IMG/VR virus record: IMGVR_UViG_3300020583_000010
Location: 1 to 64,000 of that record
Direction: 5' to 3' (one strand)
DNA length: 64,000 nucleotides
From: a virus
A program made the translations under genes and the position numbers. Under the pieces are notes generated by a model. It made no database searches, was not told the origin of the DNA, and saw only the letters and a program-made list of their open reading frames with translations. Shown piece after piece: positions 128-58,453 of the stretch (positions are counted from its first letter, which is position 1; each line of letters begins with the position of its first letter).

Positions 128-204
128 TGGACGATTGGGGATTTGAACCCCGCTCCGTGATGTGCCGCGTGCGGCTTTCATCGCGTCGAAACCAGATATC
201 GCCC
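128..204 (-). ncRNA. tmRNA-like RNA (tRNA-like domain only, no tag region)
   Basis: The transcript starts GGGCGAT-AT-CTGGTTTCGACG, matching the conserved tmRNA 5' end (actinobacterial tmRNAs carry GGUUUCGAC). It ends GGGG-TTCAAAT-CCCC-AATCGTCC-A. The 7-bp acceptor GGGCGAT/ATCGTCC pairs fully and contains G3-U70, the alanyl-tRNA synthetase identity pair. There is no D-stem or anticodon arm. The two halves are joined by a near-perfect CGCGATG/CATCACG helix capped by GCCG-CACG-CGGC. Normal tmRNAs are about 350-400 nt with a tag frame and pseudoknots; here those are absent and the total is 77 nt. CCA is not encoded. The alternative is a degenerate tRNA pseudogene, but the intact conserved tmRNA elements argue against that. 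Confidence 0.6.
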
Positions 205-284
205 TTTAGTTGTTCCACCAGAAGCCTATTGAGACTCCCGCGAACAATCTCCCTGGCAAGAGCTGAGGACTTACATCCTCTGCG

Positions 285-356
285 CGATTCGTACGGGTGT
301 TGATCCCGTGACCTCTGGCTTGACAAGCCAGTGCTCTACCGTTGAGCTAACGAACC
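285..356 (-). tRNA. tRNA-Asp (GTC)
   Basis: Acceptor GGTTCGT/ACGAATC, D-stem GCTC/GAGC, anticodon arm CTGGC-TTGTCAA-GCCAG (anticodon GTC) and T-arm ACGGG/CCCGT. CCA is not encoded. It is the second-last RNA gene at the left end of the array. Confidence 0.93.
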
Positions 357-360
357 AAGT

Positions 361-421
361 GTTAAGCCTTTTACCTAGAAACTCAGCCTAGTGATCTGGA
401 ACGCCAGTGGAGTAGCTTAAC
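361..421. repeat. Inverted repeat closing an inter-tRNA spacer
   Basis: GTTAAGC (361-367) and GCTTAAC (415-421) bracket nearly the whole spacer between tRNA-Asp and tRNA-Glu. Inside are further pairings (CTAG with CTAG, CTGG-AACG-CCAG). Other spacers in this array show the same layout. Confidence 0.5.
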
Positions 422-430
422 TGTCCAGCG

Positions 431-501
431 CAGCCTATCCCGGTACTGACCCGAGGACAACAGGTTGAGAACCTGCCGTGTTACCATTACACCAATAGGC
501 C
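431..501 (-). tRNA. tRNA-Glu (CTC)
   Basis: Acceptor GGCCTAT/ATAGGCT, D-stem GTGT/ACAC, anticodon arm GCAGG-TTCTCAA-CCTGT (CTC). The T-loop is GTCAGTA between CTCGG and CCGGG instead of TTCRANN, a variant shared with the tRNA-His of this window. Confidence 0.85.
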
Positions 502-569
502 TTCACTAGGATAACGCGCCTAGTCGCGAGCCGTCACCGCTAGGTGTCACAAGCATGCCTTGTGGAGCG

Positions 570-641
570 CAGTCCCAGAGAGAATTGAACTCTCTCCTTC
601 GGTGTGAAAAACCGAGATCCTAGCCAATAGACGATGGGACC
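570..641 (-). tRNA. tRNA-Glu (TTC)
   Basis: Acceptor GGTCCCA/TGGGACT, anticodon arm TCGGT-TTTTCAC-ACCGA (TTC), T-arm GAGAG-TTCAATT-CTCTC. It is a normal class I tRNA and the second Glu acceptor in the array. Confidence 0.92.
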
Positions 642-658
642 GTGTTATGAAATTATCG

Positions 659-958
659 TCAGTCTTGCAGAGGAGCCGGACCATTTTCATCGAAACGAAG
701 TTCCCACTTAGATGGCGTAGCCTTTACTGTAGAGCCGCTCAGCGAGCTTACCTTGTCTTGTATGTCATAGCTTACCAGAGCGGCTACTAAGCTGTCAAGT
801 GTTCCTGAGGCCACATGTTCGCGCCATACACCCTCCTCGTTAGGCTCTGGCAGCTCACGGTACAGGCGAAAGCTGTAGGCATCTGCATTGAGAAAGAATG
901 AGTAGGTGTCATTCTTAACCTTGATCACTGTGTACTTCGCGGCATCTGTCGATGTCAT
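659..958 (-). CDS. Hypothetical protein, 99 aa
   Basis: No family is recognised. The product is a soluble, mixed-charge protein without membrane segments or cysteine motifs. A good ribosome site (AGGAG, seven bases before ATG 958) supports translation. It sits between tRNA-Arg and tRNA-Glu inside the RNA array, so it is probably co-transcribed with the tRNAs and released by their processing. Confidence 0.7.
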   Translation of the reverse strand: MTSTDAAKYTVIKVKNDTYSFFLNADAYSFRLYRELPEPNEEGVWREHVASGTLDSLVAALVSYDIQDKVSSLSGSTVKATPSKWELRFDENGPAPLQD

Positions 959-974
959 TTACTCTCCTGTTCGC

Positions 975-994
975 TGTTCGGGGAACCCCGAACA
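975..994. repeat. 20-bp perfect palindrome
   Basis: TGTTCGGGG followed by AACCCCGAACA forms a perfect 20-bp palindrome between tRNA-Arg and the 99-aa gene, just before its ribosome site. It could be a transcript hairpin or a dimeric operator. It has GTTC..GAAC order, not the GAAC-N4-GTTC order of actinobacterial LexA boxes. Confidence 0.6.
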
Positions 995-1005
995 CTAGGT
1001 TAACG

Positions 1006-1078
1006 CGCCCCTGGAGAGATTCGAACTCCCGGCCATGACCATAGAAGGGTCTTGCTCTGTCCGCTGAGCTACAGAGGC
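1006..1078 (-). tRNA. tRNA-Arg (TCT)
   Basis: Acceptor GCCTCTG/CAGGGGC, D-stem GCTC/GAGC, anticodon loop CTTCTAT (TCT, reads AGA) and T-arm GGGAG-TTCGAAT-CTCTC. The predicted start of transcription (1080) lies two bases before its 5' end, so this tRNA would hardly need a leader. Confidence 0.92.
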
Positions 1079-2045: not shown

Positions 2046-2611
2046 CAGCTTTTGCCGCTCTCTTTAAGAGCATCTCTGAGCTGTTCTTTTATCTGTTTAA
2101 CACGACTGACTCTGGCGATAGCCAAGGTTGTTATAGATGAGGCCAGAGAAATAGCCCTAATCACACAGGCCAGTATAAGAACCATCACGGCTATAGAAGA
2201 CAGAATAGGGTAAATAGCGGGCTCTGGAAGGGATAAGCCCACTGCCAGGGTAGCATAGCAGTAGTAGCTAAACAGAGCAGCATACAGCCACAGACCTGTT
2301 ATCTCAAGTTTCCGTATTGCAAGAAGATTATGCTGAGCCATAGTGGCGAGAGACCAGATAAGGATCACGCTGGCGAACAGCAGTAGGCCAGACCATATGA
2401 ATAGGCCTACAGCACCATGATAGTAAGGAAGAGACAGTTGGTCTAAATGCTGTATATGCTGTAGTATAAGAGCGGCGGAGGACAGCAGCCCGAAGACCAC
2501 CAGAAACACTTCGAACGGCTCTGCCACAAAGCCTGAAGGAGTCAGCAGAAAAGATTTGAAAAATAGCCGCTGATGCAGAGACAGCTTCCCTGGTATAATG
2601 CTATTGCTCAT
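2045..2611 (-). CDS. Polytopic membrane protein, 188 aa
   Basis: About four hydrophobic segments are visible (roughly residues 29-50, 64-88, 105-124 and 130-158), followed by a basic cytoplasmic tail. Its start overlaps the end of the ribonucleotide reductase gene by eleven bases, so it belongs to the same transcript. No family is recognised; with its two membrane neighbours it may form an envelope-directed module. Confidence 0.65.
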   Translation of the reverse strand: MSNSIIPGKLSLHQRLFFKSFLLTPSGFVAEPFEVFLVVFGLLSSAALILQHIQHLDQLSLPYYHGAVGLFIWSGLLLFASVILIWSLATMAQHNLLAIRKLEITGLWLYAALFSYYCYATLAVGLSLPEPAIYPILSSIAVMVLILACVIRAISLASSITTLAIARVSRVKQIKEQLRDALKESGKS

Positions 2612-5600
2612 GAGTTTTCACATTCTCTTCGAACTCTTTAATAAGACAAGTATCGGTTTGACAGAAGGATTCACCTATAGCCTCAAGGCCTAAGCCCTGA
2701 TATATACCTGAAAGATCGACTGGCATAAGTTCGAACTCTGCTGCTTCGAAGTCTTCTTCAGAGATATGGGTATAGGGCATTTGCGGGTATACCTTATTTC
2801 CTGAGGGCAGGAAACTTACTGTTTTTAAGCTTCCATCGTACATTTTAAGTATCGTACCCACATGTTCTTTTTCTGTTTCCGGATCAAAAGTCAGAGTAAC
2901 TGAAACAGAGTTGTCAGACCAGTATCTTTGAAGTAGTACAGCAAGGTTAGCTTTCTCGAATAATGAAACATCCTGCTGTGATCTCTTAGCCTGGGACTTG
3001 ATGGGGAAGTAGACAACCACTGTCGTTTCTGGATTGGAGACATCAACTTCTACCTTATAACCGGAGTGCTTGAACAGGAATACCATAGGGTCGTCTTTGG
3101 CGAAACGAACAGCCCTGTTGAAGTATGCGCCGCCAGGACCCCAATGAGCGCCTGGAGAGGACCCCGCAAGAATGGAAACTGTATTATGGGATTTAACAGC
3201 TCCAGCATAGTACCAGTGAGTGTCTTCTACCTCAATGTCAAAAGTATCCATTTCCCCCATTGACTCAACTGCTGTAACTTTGCCAAAAATAGTATTGCAA
3301 CTCGTACGTCGTCTATGAGGAGACCAGGGAAGTTCGGGATGACGAGGATTAGACATTTTCCAACTGTGGCCCGTCATCATATTTAGGCGTTCAGGTACTG
3401 TATCCGGACCTAGACACATTAACCACATTGATTTCTCAGGTTGAAGGTTCTCTCCTTTAGTATTATGCGATCTTCCTAGAACAATGCCTACAGATAGTGC
3501 TACGTCCTGTACATGTCTTGCAAAATTCGCGCTAGCAGTTCCTAATATTATAATGTTCTCTTTTGATCTAGCCGCTACATGGCCATCTGCATCAATCAGT
3601 CCTGCCAAGAAGGCTAAAATAGTTTCATGACTAGAACGTCTAACAACTTCTGGGATTAAGTCAATATCATTAGCAAAATACTTCCATACGCCGTTCTTAA
3701 TCAACCAGTGCCAAAGCATTTTCGAGCCTATATCAAGAGTAAAAGCCCCTTCTCCGTGCTTATGGTGAATACTGGACTTGACTCCAAATACTTCCAAGAG
3801 AATGCGTTGCGCCTTTTCTAGATTTTCTATAATAGCATCTGTAAATCTGAGCCTGTACCTTCCCGGACTCATGGCACCGTCTCCCCATAGATATCCAAGT
3901 AGCCAGCCAATGTCGGGTGTCATAGACACCGGTTGAAGAATCTCTGTAGCGTCTCCACGCATAGATATCGCTCGGGAATCTAGTCTGTCTAATGGCGCTT
4001 CAGTCAAGGAGGTGTACACGCCTGGTATCACTTCTAAAACATCCCCAGACTGAAGTTCATCTGTACGAACCCAGGCATTGACAGTTGTCCATCGTGTTTT
4101 CTTAGATCGGTCATACCTGCGACTTACCCACCAGCGGTGGTTACCTGTACTCCTTACTTCCATTCCATAGGACATACGAACCGAAAAGACTTCGGCCTTT
4201 CCATTATCATAGGTCTTTGTAATTCTAGAAGAAGTGCCGTCTTGAGATGCTGAGTATCCGCTGAAAGGATGCCAAACTTCATTATTACTGTGACCAGAAG
4301 CAGTAAATATTTCTTCTAAGGTAAGAATTCCTTGATCCGTCGTAGTTAGAGCTTCCCACGGGCGGCAGCCACTGGGTTTTACTGTCGTCGTCTTTATGGA
4401 TTCTCGAACACAGAGCCACTCAGAGTACACCTCGTCATAGTACTGTACAGTTGCGTACGTAGAATCAAGCCATTGACGTAATTTGGTCATTCCATTAGTA
4501 TCTGTGAAGTCAGCTACACCCGAGACACTACAGCCGATACGACGATTCCGCTGCATAATGGCATTTGTTTTCTCCCAGTGAGTTGCCATTAGTGTTACTG
4601 TTTTAGCATACAAGAAAGCTAGCTTAGCAGTCTGCTGGAAATCTTTCAGATCTTTATGTCTATTCATGAATAACTCTACAAGAGTACAACACTCTCCTGA
4701 CTCCAATGTTTGCTCTGAGCAGGGGTTATACCCTTTAGCTCTGTGATCTTTGTTATTCACAGGGTCAATTAATCTACCATAGGCGCGGGATACATCCATC
4801 CACACTATGCCCGGTTCCCCATTCAGAGAGATAGCTTCAGTAAGATTAGATAGATCTTGGCCGACTTCTGCTAGTACCGAATTGTTTGAAATCCAGCCCC
4901 AGCCTGACTTACCGGGGTCTTCAGAGTACTTATTGCGAGCTGGGTAAATATCGGGATTCTTGAGATTGTGAAAGTTCTCATCGGTAACCTCACCAAGCAG
5001 TAGTTCAGCACTACGCCTAACATTGCCACTTACGACGCAAACCCCAATAAGGTTTCCTATGTCTGCAATTAATTCAACATCAAGCTCTGAAACTTCACCT
5101 TCTTCTAGGCGAGCTGTGAACAACTCATGCAGTTTCTCATGAAGGCGCTCTAGCGGAGCAGGGCCAGCAGAAGTACCGCCAAATGTCTTTATAAGATCAC
5201 CAGCCGGACGTACCTTAGAAGTGTCAAGGTATAGTAATGGCTTATTCGGCATCAGATAAGACTCAAGAAGTTTCTTGACTGATTCTACCCAACCTTCTCT
5301 AGTATCAGGCACTTGATATACTTCATATTCTGTAAGGCTAGGCTCATAAATTCTTAATCTCTTCTTGGAACCTAGCGTGTCAAATCCCACGCCAATACCG
5401 AGCATACTGGCTTCCATTAGAAATGTAAAAGGGCTTGACGGGTCTGCTCGGGTAATATCTTCGCTAGATATATATGAGCAGTTCTGAAGTGCCGCAGAAT
5501 TTCTATGCTCCATGACCAAAGAAGTACCCATCATCCATAGGCCTCGGCCTGGCGGCAACCATTTGAAATTGAACATACGATCATAGGCATCTTGAGCAGT

Positions 5601-5855
5601 ACGCTGAGCCTTATCAGCTCTCCATGGCAACCTATTCTGACGGCAATGGTCCTTTTGTATGGACATCATGCCCTCTATGACACGCTGGCAGACTTCCCAC
5701 CACTGCTCTTTCGTACCGTCTTCTTTAATCCTGCTGTACGTTCTGAGAAACGTAATCTCACCTAGTGAATTACCTCCGGCATCCTTGAACCCCCAGTCTA
5801 CCGGCTTGTCTTTGTAAGTTTCGATAAAGTCAGTGGGAAGCCGGAAACTGAACAC
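2601..5855 (-). CDS. Class II (B12-dependent) ribonucleotide reductase with intein
   Basis: It reduces ribonucleotides to deoxyribonucleotides using adenosylcobalamin and resembles the monomeric Lactobacillus leichmannii type. Visible signatures are QNCSY (C126), NPCSEQ (C379), TTVKPSG...TVSILAGSSPG, and a C-terminal CQTDTC redox pair (C1065, C1070). The 1084-aa precursor contains a 395-aa intein (residues 497-891), leaving a 689-aa enzyme, close to the usual 700-740. The start is GTG 5855 with AGAGGAC upstream. A late-type CCGAT-like motif lies 36 bp before it. Together with ThyX and a deaminase it supplies DNA precursors. Confidence 0.95.
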   Translation of the reverse strand: MFSFRLPTDFIETYKDKPVDWGFKDAGGNSLGEITFLRTYSRIKEDGTKEQWWEVCQRVIEGMMSIQKDHCRQNRLPWRADKAQRTAQDAYDRMFNFKWLPPGRGLWMMGTSLVMEHRNSAALQNCSYISSEDITRADPSSPFTFLMEASMLGIGVGFDTLGSKKRLRIYEPSLTEYEVYQVPDTREGWVESVKKLLESYLMPNKPLLYLDTSKVRPAGDLIKTFGGTSAGPAPLERLHEKLHELFTARLEEGEVSELDVELIADIGNLIGVCVVSGNVRRSAELLLGEVTDENFHNLKNPDIYPARNKYSEDPGKSGWGWISNNSVLAEVGQDLSNLTEAISLNGEPGIVWMDVSRAYGRLIDPVNNKDHRAKGYNPCSEQTLESGECCTLVELFMNRHKDLKDFQQTAKLAFLYAKTVTLMATHWEKTNAIMQRNRRIGCSVSGVADFTDTNGMTKLRQWLDSTYATVQYYDEVYSEWLCVRESIKTTTVKPSGCRPWEALTTTDQGILTLEEIFTASGHSNNEVWHPFSGYSASQDGTSSRITKTYDNGKAEVFSVRMSYGMEVRSTGNHRWWVSRRYDRSKKTRWTTVNAWVRTDELQSGDVLEVIPGVYTSLTEAPLDRLDSRAISMRGDATEILQPVSMTPDIGWLLGYLWGDGAMSPGRYRLRFTDAIIENLEKAQRILLEVFGVKSSIHHKHGEGAFTLDIGSKMLWHWLIKNGVWKYFANDIDLIPEVVRRSSHETILAFLAGLIDADGHVAARSKENIIILGTASANFARHVQDVALSVGIVLGRSHNTKGENLQPEKSMWLMCLGPDTVPERLNMMTGHSWKMSNPRHPELPWSPHRRRTSCNTIFGKVTAVESMGEMDTFDIEVEDTHWYYAGAVKSHNTVSILAGSSPGAHWGPGGAYFNRAVRFAKDDPMVFLFKHSGYKVEVDVSNPETTVVVYFPIKSQAKRSQQDVSLFEKANLAVLLQRYWSDNSVSVTLTFDPETEKEHVGTILKMYDGSLKTVSFLPSGNKVYPQMPYTHISEEDFEAAEFELMPVDLSGIYQGLGLEAIGESFCQTDTCLIKEFEENVKTHEQ
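3183..4367 (-). other. Intein (LAGLIDADG homing type) in ribonucleotide reductase
   Basis: The 395-aa insertion splits KPSG/TVS. It begins CRPWEAL, has a block-B-like TGNHRWWV (H573), two LAGLIDADG-type motifs (LLGYLWGDG near 653 and FLAGLIDADG near 750), and ends VKSHN before Thr. Splicing would use Cys1, the penultimate His, the final Asn and Thr+1. The site is in the highly conserved substrate loop, a typical intein niche. Confidence 0.92.
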
Positions 5856-8172: not shown

Positions 8173-8197
8173 TTTGCTGCCTTCCTATTATATAGCG

Positions 8198-8270
8198 TAC
8201 CTGAGGTCAGATTTGAACTGACACTGTCTTCCTTCTAAGGAAGTGTCTCCTACCGTTGGACTACCCAGGC
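8198..8270 (-). tRNA. tRNA of uncertain identity (atypical anticodon arm)
   Basis: Acceptor GCCTGGG/CTCAGGT and T-arm GTCAG-TTCAAAT-CTGAC are normal. The best anticodon helix is CTTCC/GGAAG around a six-base loop TTAGAA. If a seven-base loop is forced the anticodon would be TAG (Leu), with two mismatches in the stem. AGA (Ser) is another reading. There is no long variable arm. It may be a decayed or specialised tRNA. Confidence 0.6.
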
Positions 8271-56519: not shown

Positions 56520-57200
56520 CTACCTGTGCTCTTCGAAGGTAGCTGCTACTGTAGCAGGGTACATCTCTGGAGTAGTGTGAACTCCTTCAAGCTCTCCTAT
56601 ATGGCAAGATCTGCTGACCCCCGGATGAACAAATGGGTTTACAGACTTAGCCAGCCTAGAGAGATTCCAATCCCAGCCAGCCTCAGCTCCATTAGCCAGT
56701 CCAGTAGAGTAGTCATGGTCCCATGTGTCCCTTATATGATGTTCCCAAGACTCTTTCCAGGTTCCCCACACTAAAACTTCGAATCTTCTCTCTAGCCTTA
56801 GCTCATCCTGGGTTCCGGCTAGGTTGTAAGTATGTGAGCATATTCCTAAAACATCACTCGGAGTATATACTCTTTTAGCTCTGCCAAAGTACTCCAATAT
56901 GTCATCTGACACTATTATGTCTTCTTCAGCTAGAATAGTGAAGTCAGATCCATTATTAAATGAGTAGTTAAGAGCTCTCCAAGGATTACCAAGAACCCCA
57001 TGCTTGTGGGTATTCTCGTGTATAGTAATGTTTAAGGTAGACTCTTCCATTACTCTAAGCATCTCTGACTGTCTATCACTTGGATCTAAGAATATATCAA
57101 TTTCTGTATTCTCTATTCCGCGTACCCTAGCCCAGCTCTCTAAAGACCTTCTAAGGTAAGGTGCACGTCTATGAGCTGTAAATACTATATTAATGCTCAA
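56520..57200 (-). CDS. Glycosyltransferase-like protein, 226 aa
   Basis: A GT-A-type fold is suggested by IVFTAHRRAPYLRRSLESWARV near the start, followed by a FTILAEEDIIVSDD acidic metal-binding motif and later AEAGWDWNLSRLA. It resembles GNT-I/GT2-like enzymes. It overlaps the dehydrogenase gene by four bases. Confidence 0.7.
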   Translation of the reverse strand: MSINIVFTAHRRAPYLRRSLESWARVRGIENTEIDIFLDPSDRQSEMLRVMEESTLNITIHENTHKHGVLGNPWRALNYSFNNGSDFTILAEEDIIVSDDILEYFGRAKRVYTPSDVLGICSHTYNLAGTQDELRLERRFEVLVWGTWKESWEHHIRDTWDHDYSTGLANGAEAGWDWNLSRLAKSVNPFVHPGVSRSCHIGELEGVHTTPEMYPATVAATFEEHR

Positions 57201-58453
57201 AGTTGTTCACCTAGAGGCACATAAGTAATAGTAGAAGAAATGTGTACTATGTACCTAAAGGGATCTACTACTACGCTGCCTTCAGGAAATTTTAGATACT
57301 CAAATGCAGAATGCTTTGTACCCACTAAGTATACGGCAGGTTTATTGAGTGCACTCTCTACACTTTCAGCACCATCTATATACGGGTCTACTTGAGTAGA
57401 GTCTCTTCCCATATAAGATAAAAGATTTCCTACCAGTGTTGCTGGTGAACCGTTTACTAGGTTAGACTCTGGCTTATAGGCCTTACCCAGAATAACTACG
57501 GGCAGTTCTCTACTATCGGAGTAAGAGTACAGCAGGTCAGCTAACCACTGAGCCTGGTCTTCACGAGCTTTCGAGACAAACTCGAAAGGGTCAGCTGACA
57601 ACTCTAAAGTGTCAGCAAGCCAGGACATTGCTATATTATCCCTTGGGTGACAAGAACCACCATCCCCCATCCCTCCGCGCATATAGGTTGGACTTATTAC
57701 ACGCTCTGTAGCTAGGGAAAGTCCATCAATAACGCTGTCACAGTCTGCTCCTATCTTGTGACAGATCTCCATCATAGTGTTTCCAAATACTACCTTCATA
57801 GAGATAAAGCAGTTGTAGGCTACTTTAGTCAATTCTGCTGACTTTATATCCATTATGCATACTGGACGATCATGCACTGTAGAATAGATAGACTTTAATA
57901 GGTTAACGGAACTGTTATCGAAGTTATCATGCCCCACTAATACAAACTCTGGGTTAAGAAAGTCATTAATAGTCGTTCCCATAGCTATAAAGAATGGGTT
58001 ATAAACTAAGTCTACATAAGTATTAAGAACTGGTTTTATATAGGTGTCCATAGACCCTGGCAGTGCAGTTGATATAATTACAAGAGTTATATTCTTCTTT
58101 AGTTCTGCTGCTGCCGCACTTATAGATTTTGCAGCAGTAGATAGCCATGTGTAATTGAAATCCTTCTTCTCAGTAGGCATCAAGGTTTCGCCGCCATAAG
58201 CAGAATCGTGTGGTGTCTGTACGGCGCAAAATACAATATCAACTTCGCGCACCACATCTGCTACTGTACTACAAAGAGTCAGATTATCAAGACTTAACTC
58301 AGATAATCCATTCTCAAAAGGGTTATCATGTAAGACGGCTATATTTTCAGGCGCTATGTCATATCCATATATGATATGACCGCCCTTATCTGCCAGAGCT
58401 AGAGCACAAGGAAGCCCAAGCTTTCCTAAACCTACCCAACCAATACTAGTCAT
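57197..58453 (-). CDS. UDP-glucose/GDP-mannose-type 6-dehydrogenase
   Basis: It would oxidise a nucleotide-sugar to its uronic acid. Residues 5-15 (GWVGLGKLGLP) form the NAD-binding loop, STALPGSMD and AYNCFISMKVVFGN follow, and GGSCHPRDN (about residue 268) holds the catalytic Cys. The length of 418 aa is normal. It is flanked by glycosyltransferase-like genes with four-base overlaps, so it forms one glycan module. Which sugar it makes is unknown. Confidence 0.88.
   Translation of the reverse strand: MTSIGWVGLGKLGLPCALALADKGGHIIYGYDIAPENIAVLHDNPFENGLSELSLDNLTLCSTVADVVREVDIVFCAVQTPHDSAYGGETLMPTEKKDFNYTWLSTAAKSISAAAAELKKNITLVIISTALPGSMDTYIKPVLNTYVDLVYNPFFIAMGTTINDFLNPEFVLVGHDNFDNSSVNLLKSIYSTVHDRPVCIMDIKSAELTKVAYNCFISMKVVFGNTMMEICHKIGADCDSVIDGLSLATERVISPTYMRGGMGDGGSCHPRDNIAMSWLADTLELSADPFEFVSKAREDQAQWLADLLYSYSDSRELPVVILGKAYKPESNLVNGSPATLVGNLLSYMGRDSTQVDPYIDGAESVESALNKPAVYLVGTKHSAFEYLKFPEGSVVVDPFRYIVHISSTITYVPLGEQL

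What the first reader, a model, noticed from the sequence alone, without database searches (positions are those of the whole stretch)
128..204. A 77-nt tmRNA reduced to its tRNA-like domain
The transcript has the tmRNA 5' signature (GGGCGAT..CTGGTTTCGACG), a T-arm, and a full acceptor stem with the G3-U70 alanine identity pair. The whole mRNA-like region, tag frame and pseudoknots are replaced by a short hairpin. If expressed it could be charged with alanine, bind SmpB and enter stalled ribosomes without tagging, or act as a decoy or amino-acid donor. I know of no described phage tmRNA of this size.
Basis: partly seen in the sequence, partly recalled or inferred. Interest (0 to 1): 0.85.

Follow-up and report, generated by a model that had tools for sequence, protein, structure and literature searches.

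The report
Phage tmRNA cut to tRNA-like domain
This phage carries a 77-base RNA gene that keeps only the tRNA-like part of tmRNA (the bacterial ribosome-rescue RNA); one such phage RNA was already known, but here it proves to be a widespread, strongly conserved and mostly unannotated RNA family.

Summary
The minus strand of 204-128 encodes a 77-nt tmRNA tRNA-like domain (TLD): 7-bp acceptor stem with G3-U70, the tmRNA D-loop GGTTTCGAC, a P2 helix capped by a short hairpin, a T-arm and A73, with no room for a tag. A model built only from host full-length tmRNAs picks it as the best hit in 64 kb. It is not a relic. Sixty-nine distinct relatives from viral contigs, named phages and prophage-like regions all keep G3-U70 and A73. 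In a 20-sequence alignment 98.5% of base-pair cells pair, and 15 of 23 pairs change on both sides. The claim that no such phage tmRNA is described is wrong: mycobacteriophage DS6A has a "TLD only" tmRNA, and such a molecule is reported to inhibit tmRNA in E. coli. New here are the breadth of the family, a recurrent AAAGCC-N4-GGA-type cap, and co-occurrence: nine of nine Boydwoodruffvirinae phages tested carry a full-length tmRNA and a separate mini, whose predicted SmpB-contact bases have drifted in Samistivirus. Most likely function in this phage: an alanylated, SmpB-binding competitor of host tmRNA (inferred). Rivals: tagless ribosome rescue, or an SmpB-independent alanyl-RNA role.

The parts
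128..204 (-). TLD-only tmRNA gene (mini-tmRNA), 77 nt to the discriminator base A73
   Evidence: R1 57.2 bits E 3.9e-13; R2 32.7 bits E 1.3e-5; sequence
198..204 (-). acceptor stem 5' strand GGGCGAT; G3 at 202 pairs with U70 at 131
   Evidence: sequence; G3-U70 in 69/69 distinct relatives
186..197 (-). tmRNA-type D-loop region ATCTGGTTTCGA; equivalents of E. coli U17 (189) and G19 (187), which contact SmpB
   Evidence: sequence; contacts from PMC8363625; U17 in 63/66 relatives
179..185 (-). P2 helix 5' strand CGCGATG
   Evidence: R1 alignment; P2 covaries across the family
163..178 (-). P2 cap AAAGCCGCACGCGGCA (short hairpin) in place of the mRNA-like domain; no tag frame
   Evidence: same 14-mer in 45 viral contigs; stop-codon check
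156..162 (-). P2 helix 3' strand CATCACG
   Evidence: R1 alignment
153..155 (-). GAG linker; A154 is the equivalent of E. coli A334, an SmpB contact
   Evidence: sequence; PMC8363625; A in 64/66 relatives
136..152 (-). T-arm CGGGG-TTCAAAT-CCCCA
   Evidence: sequence; T-stem covaries in the family
128..135 (-). acceptor stem 3' strand ATCGTCC plus A73; only C74 is encoded after it, so CCA must be completed by the host enzyme
   Evidence: sequence
284..1078 (-). same-strand upstream tRNA cluster: Arg(TCT), Glu(TTC), Glu(CTC), Asp(GTC); likely shared transcription
   Evidence: ARAGORN; weak sigma-70-like site at 1115-1087 minus strand, one found against 0.7 expected

Best explanation
The element is a phage tmRNA reduced to its tRNA-like domain, with helix P2 closed by a short hairpin instead of leading into the mRNA-like domain and pseudoknots. 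It is probably transcribed with the upstream tRNA genes, trimmed by RNase P and the CCA-adding enzyme, and charged with alanine by host AlaRS through G3-U70 (inferred). Because it keeps the D-loop and linker bases that touch SmpB, it most likely binds SmpB and EF-Tu and competes with host tmRNA for SmpB, AlaRS and stalled ribosomes. That would hold down SsrA tagging of unfinished phage proteins during infection. Identity as a TLD-only tmRNA is shown (about 0.95); the competitor mechanism is inferred (about 0.4). The confidence given is for identity and mechanism together.
For: Identity: best hit in 64 kb both for the mini model and for a model trained only on host full-length tmRNA TLDs. Seven relatives, and a mini in an actinomycete genome, score above Rfam's tmRNA gathering cut-off of 47 (54.6-64.5 bits; 56.8). 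Selection: 98.5% of cells paired, 15/23 pairs changed on both sides, covariation 0.611 against 0.133 in shuffles and at most 0.1 when slid. Charging: G3-U70 and A73 in 69/69 distinct sequences while positions 4-69 and 5-68 vary freely. SmpB: equivalents of E. coli U17, G19 and A334, contacts seen by cryo-EM (PMC8363625), are present in the window; U17 in 63/66 and A334 in 64/66 relatives. Competitor: a DS6A-like TLD-only molecule strongly inhibits tmRNA in E. coli, perhaps by titrating SmpB (PMC4131195 and PMC11915505 citing Mao et al. 2009). No full-length tmRNA above cut-off was found in this phage record.
Against: The cited inhibition did not need alanine charging, yet G3-U70 and A73 never vary, so pure SmpB titration does not explain the charging signals. 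The recurrent AAAGCC-N4-GGA cap is unexplained by a simple decoy. All nine Boydwoodruffvirinae phages tested also encode a full-length tmRNA, which a decoy would inhibit too; in Samistivirus minis the SmpB-contact bases are changed, so SmpB binding is not the shared function everywhere. Expression, charging and binding are untested. Mao et al. 2009 was known only through the two citing papers.
Confidence: 0.42

Rival explanations
1. Tagless ribosome rescue: the alanylated mini with SmpB enters stalled ribosomes, takes over the nascent chain plus one alanine, and the peptidyl-RNA is then released (drop-off or peptidyl-tRNA hydrolase), freeing ribosomes without marking phage proteins for destruction.
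For: Charging signals are invariant and SmpB-contact bases are present, both needed for peptidyl transfer. CDS-less organellar tmRNAs are conserved with SmpB and thought to help with incomplete mRNAs (PMC11915505).
Against: No known step recycles the ribosome after transfer. The reported effect of such a molecule in E. coli is inhibition. SmpB-contact bases drift in Samistivirus minis.
Confidence: 0.2
2. SmpB-independent role: what is conserved across the family is an alanyl-RNA with a specific hairpin cap, acting as an alanine donor, an AlaRS or EF-Tu ligand, or an RNA that binds a phage protein or another RNA through the cap.
For: Samistivirus minis have lost the G19 and A334 equivalents but keep G3-U70, A73, P2 and the AAAGCC...GGA cap. 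They co-exist with full-length tmRNA in the same genomes. The same cap occurs with quite different P2 sequences.
Against: Most of the family, the window included, keeps the SmpB-contact bases. No partner for the cap was found, and the exact 14-mer is over-sampled because it was used as a search pattern.
Confidence: 0.2
3. A non-functional relic: an internally deleted tmRNA or a decayed tRNA with no present function.
For: No transcript data. ARAGORN and Rfam at gathering threshold miss it in the window, and in the window one P2 pair and one T-stem pair are broken.
Against: Compensatory changes across 15 of 23 pairs, invariant G3-U70 and A73 in 69 distinct sequences, and uniform lengths of 73-81 nt across unrelated phages.
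Confidence: 0.04
4. An attachment-site remnant: a stretch of host tmRNA carried by an integrating phage (attP) to rebuild ssrA.
For: tmRNA genes are common phage integration sites and attP carries the 3' half (PMC10865867).
Against: The element has both halves of the TLD directly joined, lies in tRNA arrays or between virion or replication genes, and occurs in phages reported as lytic such as BRock and Riptide.
Confidence: 0.02

Closest known systems
Mycobacteriophage DS6A TLD-only tmRNA (tmID 11587; Mao et al. 2009, PMC4131195, PMC11915505)
   Same: [quoted passage not shown] a similar molecule inhibits tmRNA.
   Different: DS6A was not in the phage collection, so its sequence and cap could not be compared. 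Here the form is shown in many unrelated phages with covariation.
Full-length bacterial and phage tmRNA (ssrA, RF00023)
   Same: Acceptor stem with G3-U70, D-loop GGNTTCGAC, P2, GGAC linker, T-arm, A73.
   Different: 266-386 nt with mRNA-like domain, tag and pseudoknots; here 77 nt with P2 capped by a hairpin and no tag.
CDS-less organellar tmRNA (jakobid mitochondria; Mallomonadaceae plastids, ~65 bp)
   Same: Tag frame lost, TLD kept (PMC11915505).
   Different: Organellar reductive evolution, not phage; sequences not compared here.
tRNA-Ala
   Same: G3-U70, A73 and T-arm.
   Different: No anticodon arm; tmRNA-type D-loop; R1 gives tRNA-Ala about 25-31 bits against 57 or more for minis.

Membership tests
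tmRNA tRNA-like domain | 7-bp acceptor stem with G3-U70 and A73 | tested here: met
   Window sequence; 69/69 relatives
tmRNA tRNA-like domain | tmRNA D-loop GGNTTCGAC, GGA linker and T-arm | tested here: met
   Window GGTTTCGAC, GGA and TTCAAAT; R2 best hit in the window, E 1.3e-5
tmRNA tRNA-like domain | Rfam RF00023 score above gathering cut-off (47 bits) | tested here: not met
   Window copy 29.3 bits, a level a tRNA-Ala can also reach; seven relatives reach 54.6-64.5 bits. RF00023 models full-length tmRNA, so this is a curation threshold rather than a defining feature of the TLD-only form.
Full-length tmRNA | Tag reading frame with stop codon, pseudoknots | tested here: not met
   Only 16 nt between P2 strands; an in-frame stop after the AAA motif in only 6, 5 and 1 of 50 relatives in the three frames
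TLD-only phage tmRNA (DS6A type) | Phage-encoded TLD without mRNA-like domain | tested here: met
   G000 is a 126-kb virus record; capsid, portal and terminase genes in the window
TLD-only phage tmRNA (DS6A type) | Inhibits host trans-translation | not testable with these tools
   Reported for a similar molecule; needs bench work
tmRNA tRNA-like domain | Alanylation and SmpB binding | not testable with these tools
   Sequence determinants present; no biochemical data
tRNA | Anticodon arm and tRNA D-arm; tRNA model or ARAGORN match | tested here: not met
   No ARAGORN call; no RF00005 match at E up to 10 in the 3-kb scan

The most novel reading that the evidence does not exclude
TLD-only tmRNAs are a large, dedicated phage RNA family whose conserved function is not SmpB titration but an alanyl-RNA with a specific hairpin cap, kept even beside a full-length phage tmRNA.
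Probability: 0.22. Interest if true: 0.8.

Novelty: new member of a known kind. Interest (0 to 1): 0.6.

Why it matters
One TLD-only phage tmRNA (DS6A) could be dismissed as a curiosity. Finding the same RNA under clear structural selection in dozens of distinct forms, hidden from ARAGORN and from Rfam gathering thresholds in many genomes, points to a common phage means of acting on trans-translation or on alanyl-RNA supply. The phages that carry both a full-length and a mini tmRNA allow a direct genetic test of whether the mini inhibits, replaces or bypasses ribosome rescue.

Tried and rejected
Hidden tag in the cap (for example Ala-Ala, GCC GCA): rejected, no conserved frame or stop. Permuted two-piece tmRNA: rejected, since the 5' half precedes the 3' half in one 77-nt unit. 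Terminator just downstream: the fold of 127-40 is no better than shuffles. Rfam RF00023 as sole proof: rejected as non-discriminating near 30 bits. Genome-collection hits outside actinomycetes to the cap 14-mer, and the Mycobacterium sp. SM1 hit, were chance or protein-coding matches without the TLD. Microbacterium phage Magritte, the nearest named kin of this phage, has no mini; its best hit looks like tRNA-Ala. DS6A under two accessions is not in the collection.

Full report
What is there. On the minus strand, 204-128 reads GGGCGAT ATCTGGTTTCGA CGCGATG AAAGCCGCACGCGGCA CATCACG GAG CGGGG TTCAAAT CCCCA ATCGTCC A. This is the layout of a tmRNA tRNA-like domain: acceptor stem with G3-U70, tmRNA D-loop, helix P2, linker, T-arm and A73. 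Between the P2 strands lie 16 nt forming a short hairpin, so no tag or pseudoknot fits. The gene lies 79 nt downstream of tRNA-Asp in a same-strand tRNA cluster of a 126-kb virus record with capsid, portal and terminase genes. Its capsid protein is 35.5% identical to that of Microbacterium phage Magritte.

Is it a tmRNA domain rather than a tRNA? ARAGORN and a 3-kb Rfam scan report nothing at the site. A short scan gives RF00023 29.3 bits across the whole model with 308 positions deleted, but tRNA-Ala of phage Tomas gets 30.3, so that score alone is weak. I therefore built a model, R2, from TLD halves of 21 distinct host full-length tmRNAs of actinomycetes, with no phage mini in it. It ranks the element first in 64 kb (32.7 bits, E 1.3e-5; next 16.4) and scores 14 of the 20 minis tested at 49 bits or more. 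A model of the minis, R1, gives 57.2 bits, E 3.9e-13, next 18.5.

Relatives. BLAST found unannotated copies in tRNA arrays of Streptomyces phages BRock, pSt2308, LuckySocke, GiJojo, Alone3, Riptide, Tomas and Naboo, and beside the capsid gene of Pontimonas phage phiPsal1. Four of 395 actinomycete genomes have a mini at 59 bits or more; the next hits are below 40 bits and those read are host full-length tmRNAs. At least two of the four lie near terminase genes. None of 274 genomes of another class exceeds 38 bits.

Selection. In a gapless 20-sequence alignment, 98.5% of cells pair, 15 of 23 pairs change on both sides, and the covariation score is 0.611 against 0.133 in shuffles and at most 0.098 in slid controls. 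In 69 distinct elements of 73-81 nt, G3-U70 and A73 never vary, while pairs 4-69 and 5-68 take several forms. Equivalents of E. coli U17 and A334, which contact SmpB (PMC8363625), are kept in 63/66 and 64/66; the window has both, and G19. The cap is AAAGCC-N4-GGA or close to it in most relatives. The exact 14-mer is over-represented because it was a search key, but related caps recur in cap-agnostic, BLAST and genome hits.

A complication. Tomas, Riptide, Naboo, Jay2Jay, Braelyn, Karimac, NootNoot, Targaryen and Warpy (nine of nine Boydwoodruffvirinae tested; Riptide placed there by similarity) carry a full-length tmRNA, with ordinary degradation tags where the tag is annotated, and a separate mini about 10 kb upstream on the same strand. 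In Samistivirus minis the D-loop and linker positions for G19 and A334 are altered, while charging signals, P2 and cap remain. The BRock-like phages and phiPsal1 show only the mini.

What was known. "Ends of the line for tmRNA-SmpB" lists phage DS6A as TLD only and states that a similar molecule, chargeable or not, strongly inhibits tmRNA, perhaps by titrating SmpB, citing Mao et al. 2009 (PMC4131195). The 2025 tmRNA database repeats this, counts nine standard-form tmRNAs without CDS and 79 phage tmRNAs in all (PMC11915505). Three further literature searches found no description of the wider family in the open papers held; the Riptide announcement reports one tmRNA only.

Mechanism. Shown: sequence, structure, family, conservation. 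Inferred: transcription with the tRNA cluster, processing, alanylation, SmpB binding. The best-supported reading for this phage is a competitor of host tmRNA, because of the published precedent and the retained SmpB-contact bases. The invariance of charging signals, the conserved cap and the phages with both forms do not fit pure SmpB titration, so tagless rescue and an SmpB-independent alanyl-RNA role stay open.

Noticed in passing
window 2601-5855 (-): A 1084-aa ORF resembling a ribonucleotide reductase looks interrupted by an intein-like insert (KPSG|CRPWEA ... VKSHN|TVSILAGSS).
   Followed up: no
window 8197-8270 (-): ARAGORN reports a tRNA with an unassignable anticodon loop in the second tRNA cluster.
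   Followed up: no
L049 5386-5670: ARAGORN calls a 285-nt tmRNA with tag ATGTRRNTA whose 3' end is a 78-nt mini; probably a false join, showing how such elements can be mis-annotated.
   Followed up: partly
Jay2Jay, Braelyn, NootNoot, Targaryen, Warpy minis (L236, L237, L239-L241): Minis in Samistivirus phages, which also encode full-length tmRNA, have altered SmpB-contact positions but keep G3-U70 and the cap.
   Followed up: partly
L015, L016, L024, L029: In several metagenomic phages without nearby tRNA genes the mini lies next to a DnaB-like helicase gene.
   Followed up: partly
window 57197-58453 (-): Phage-encoded UDP-glucose dehydrogenase homologue (PHROG 9148).
   Followed up: no
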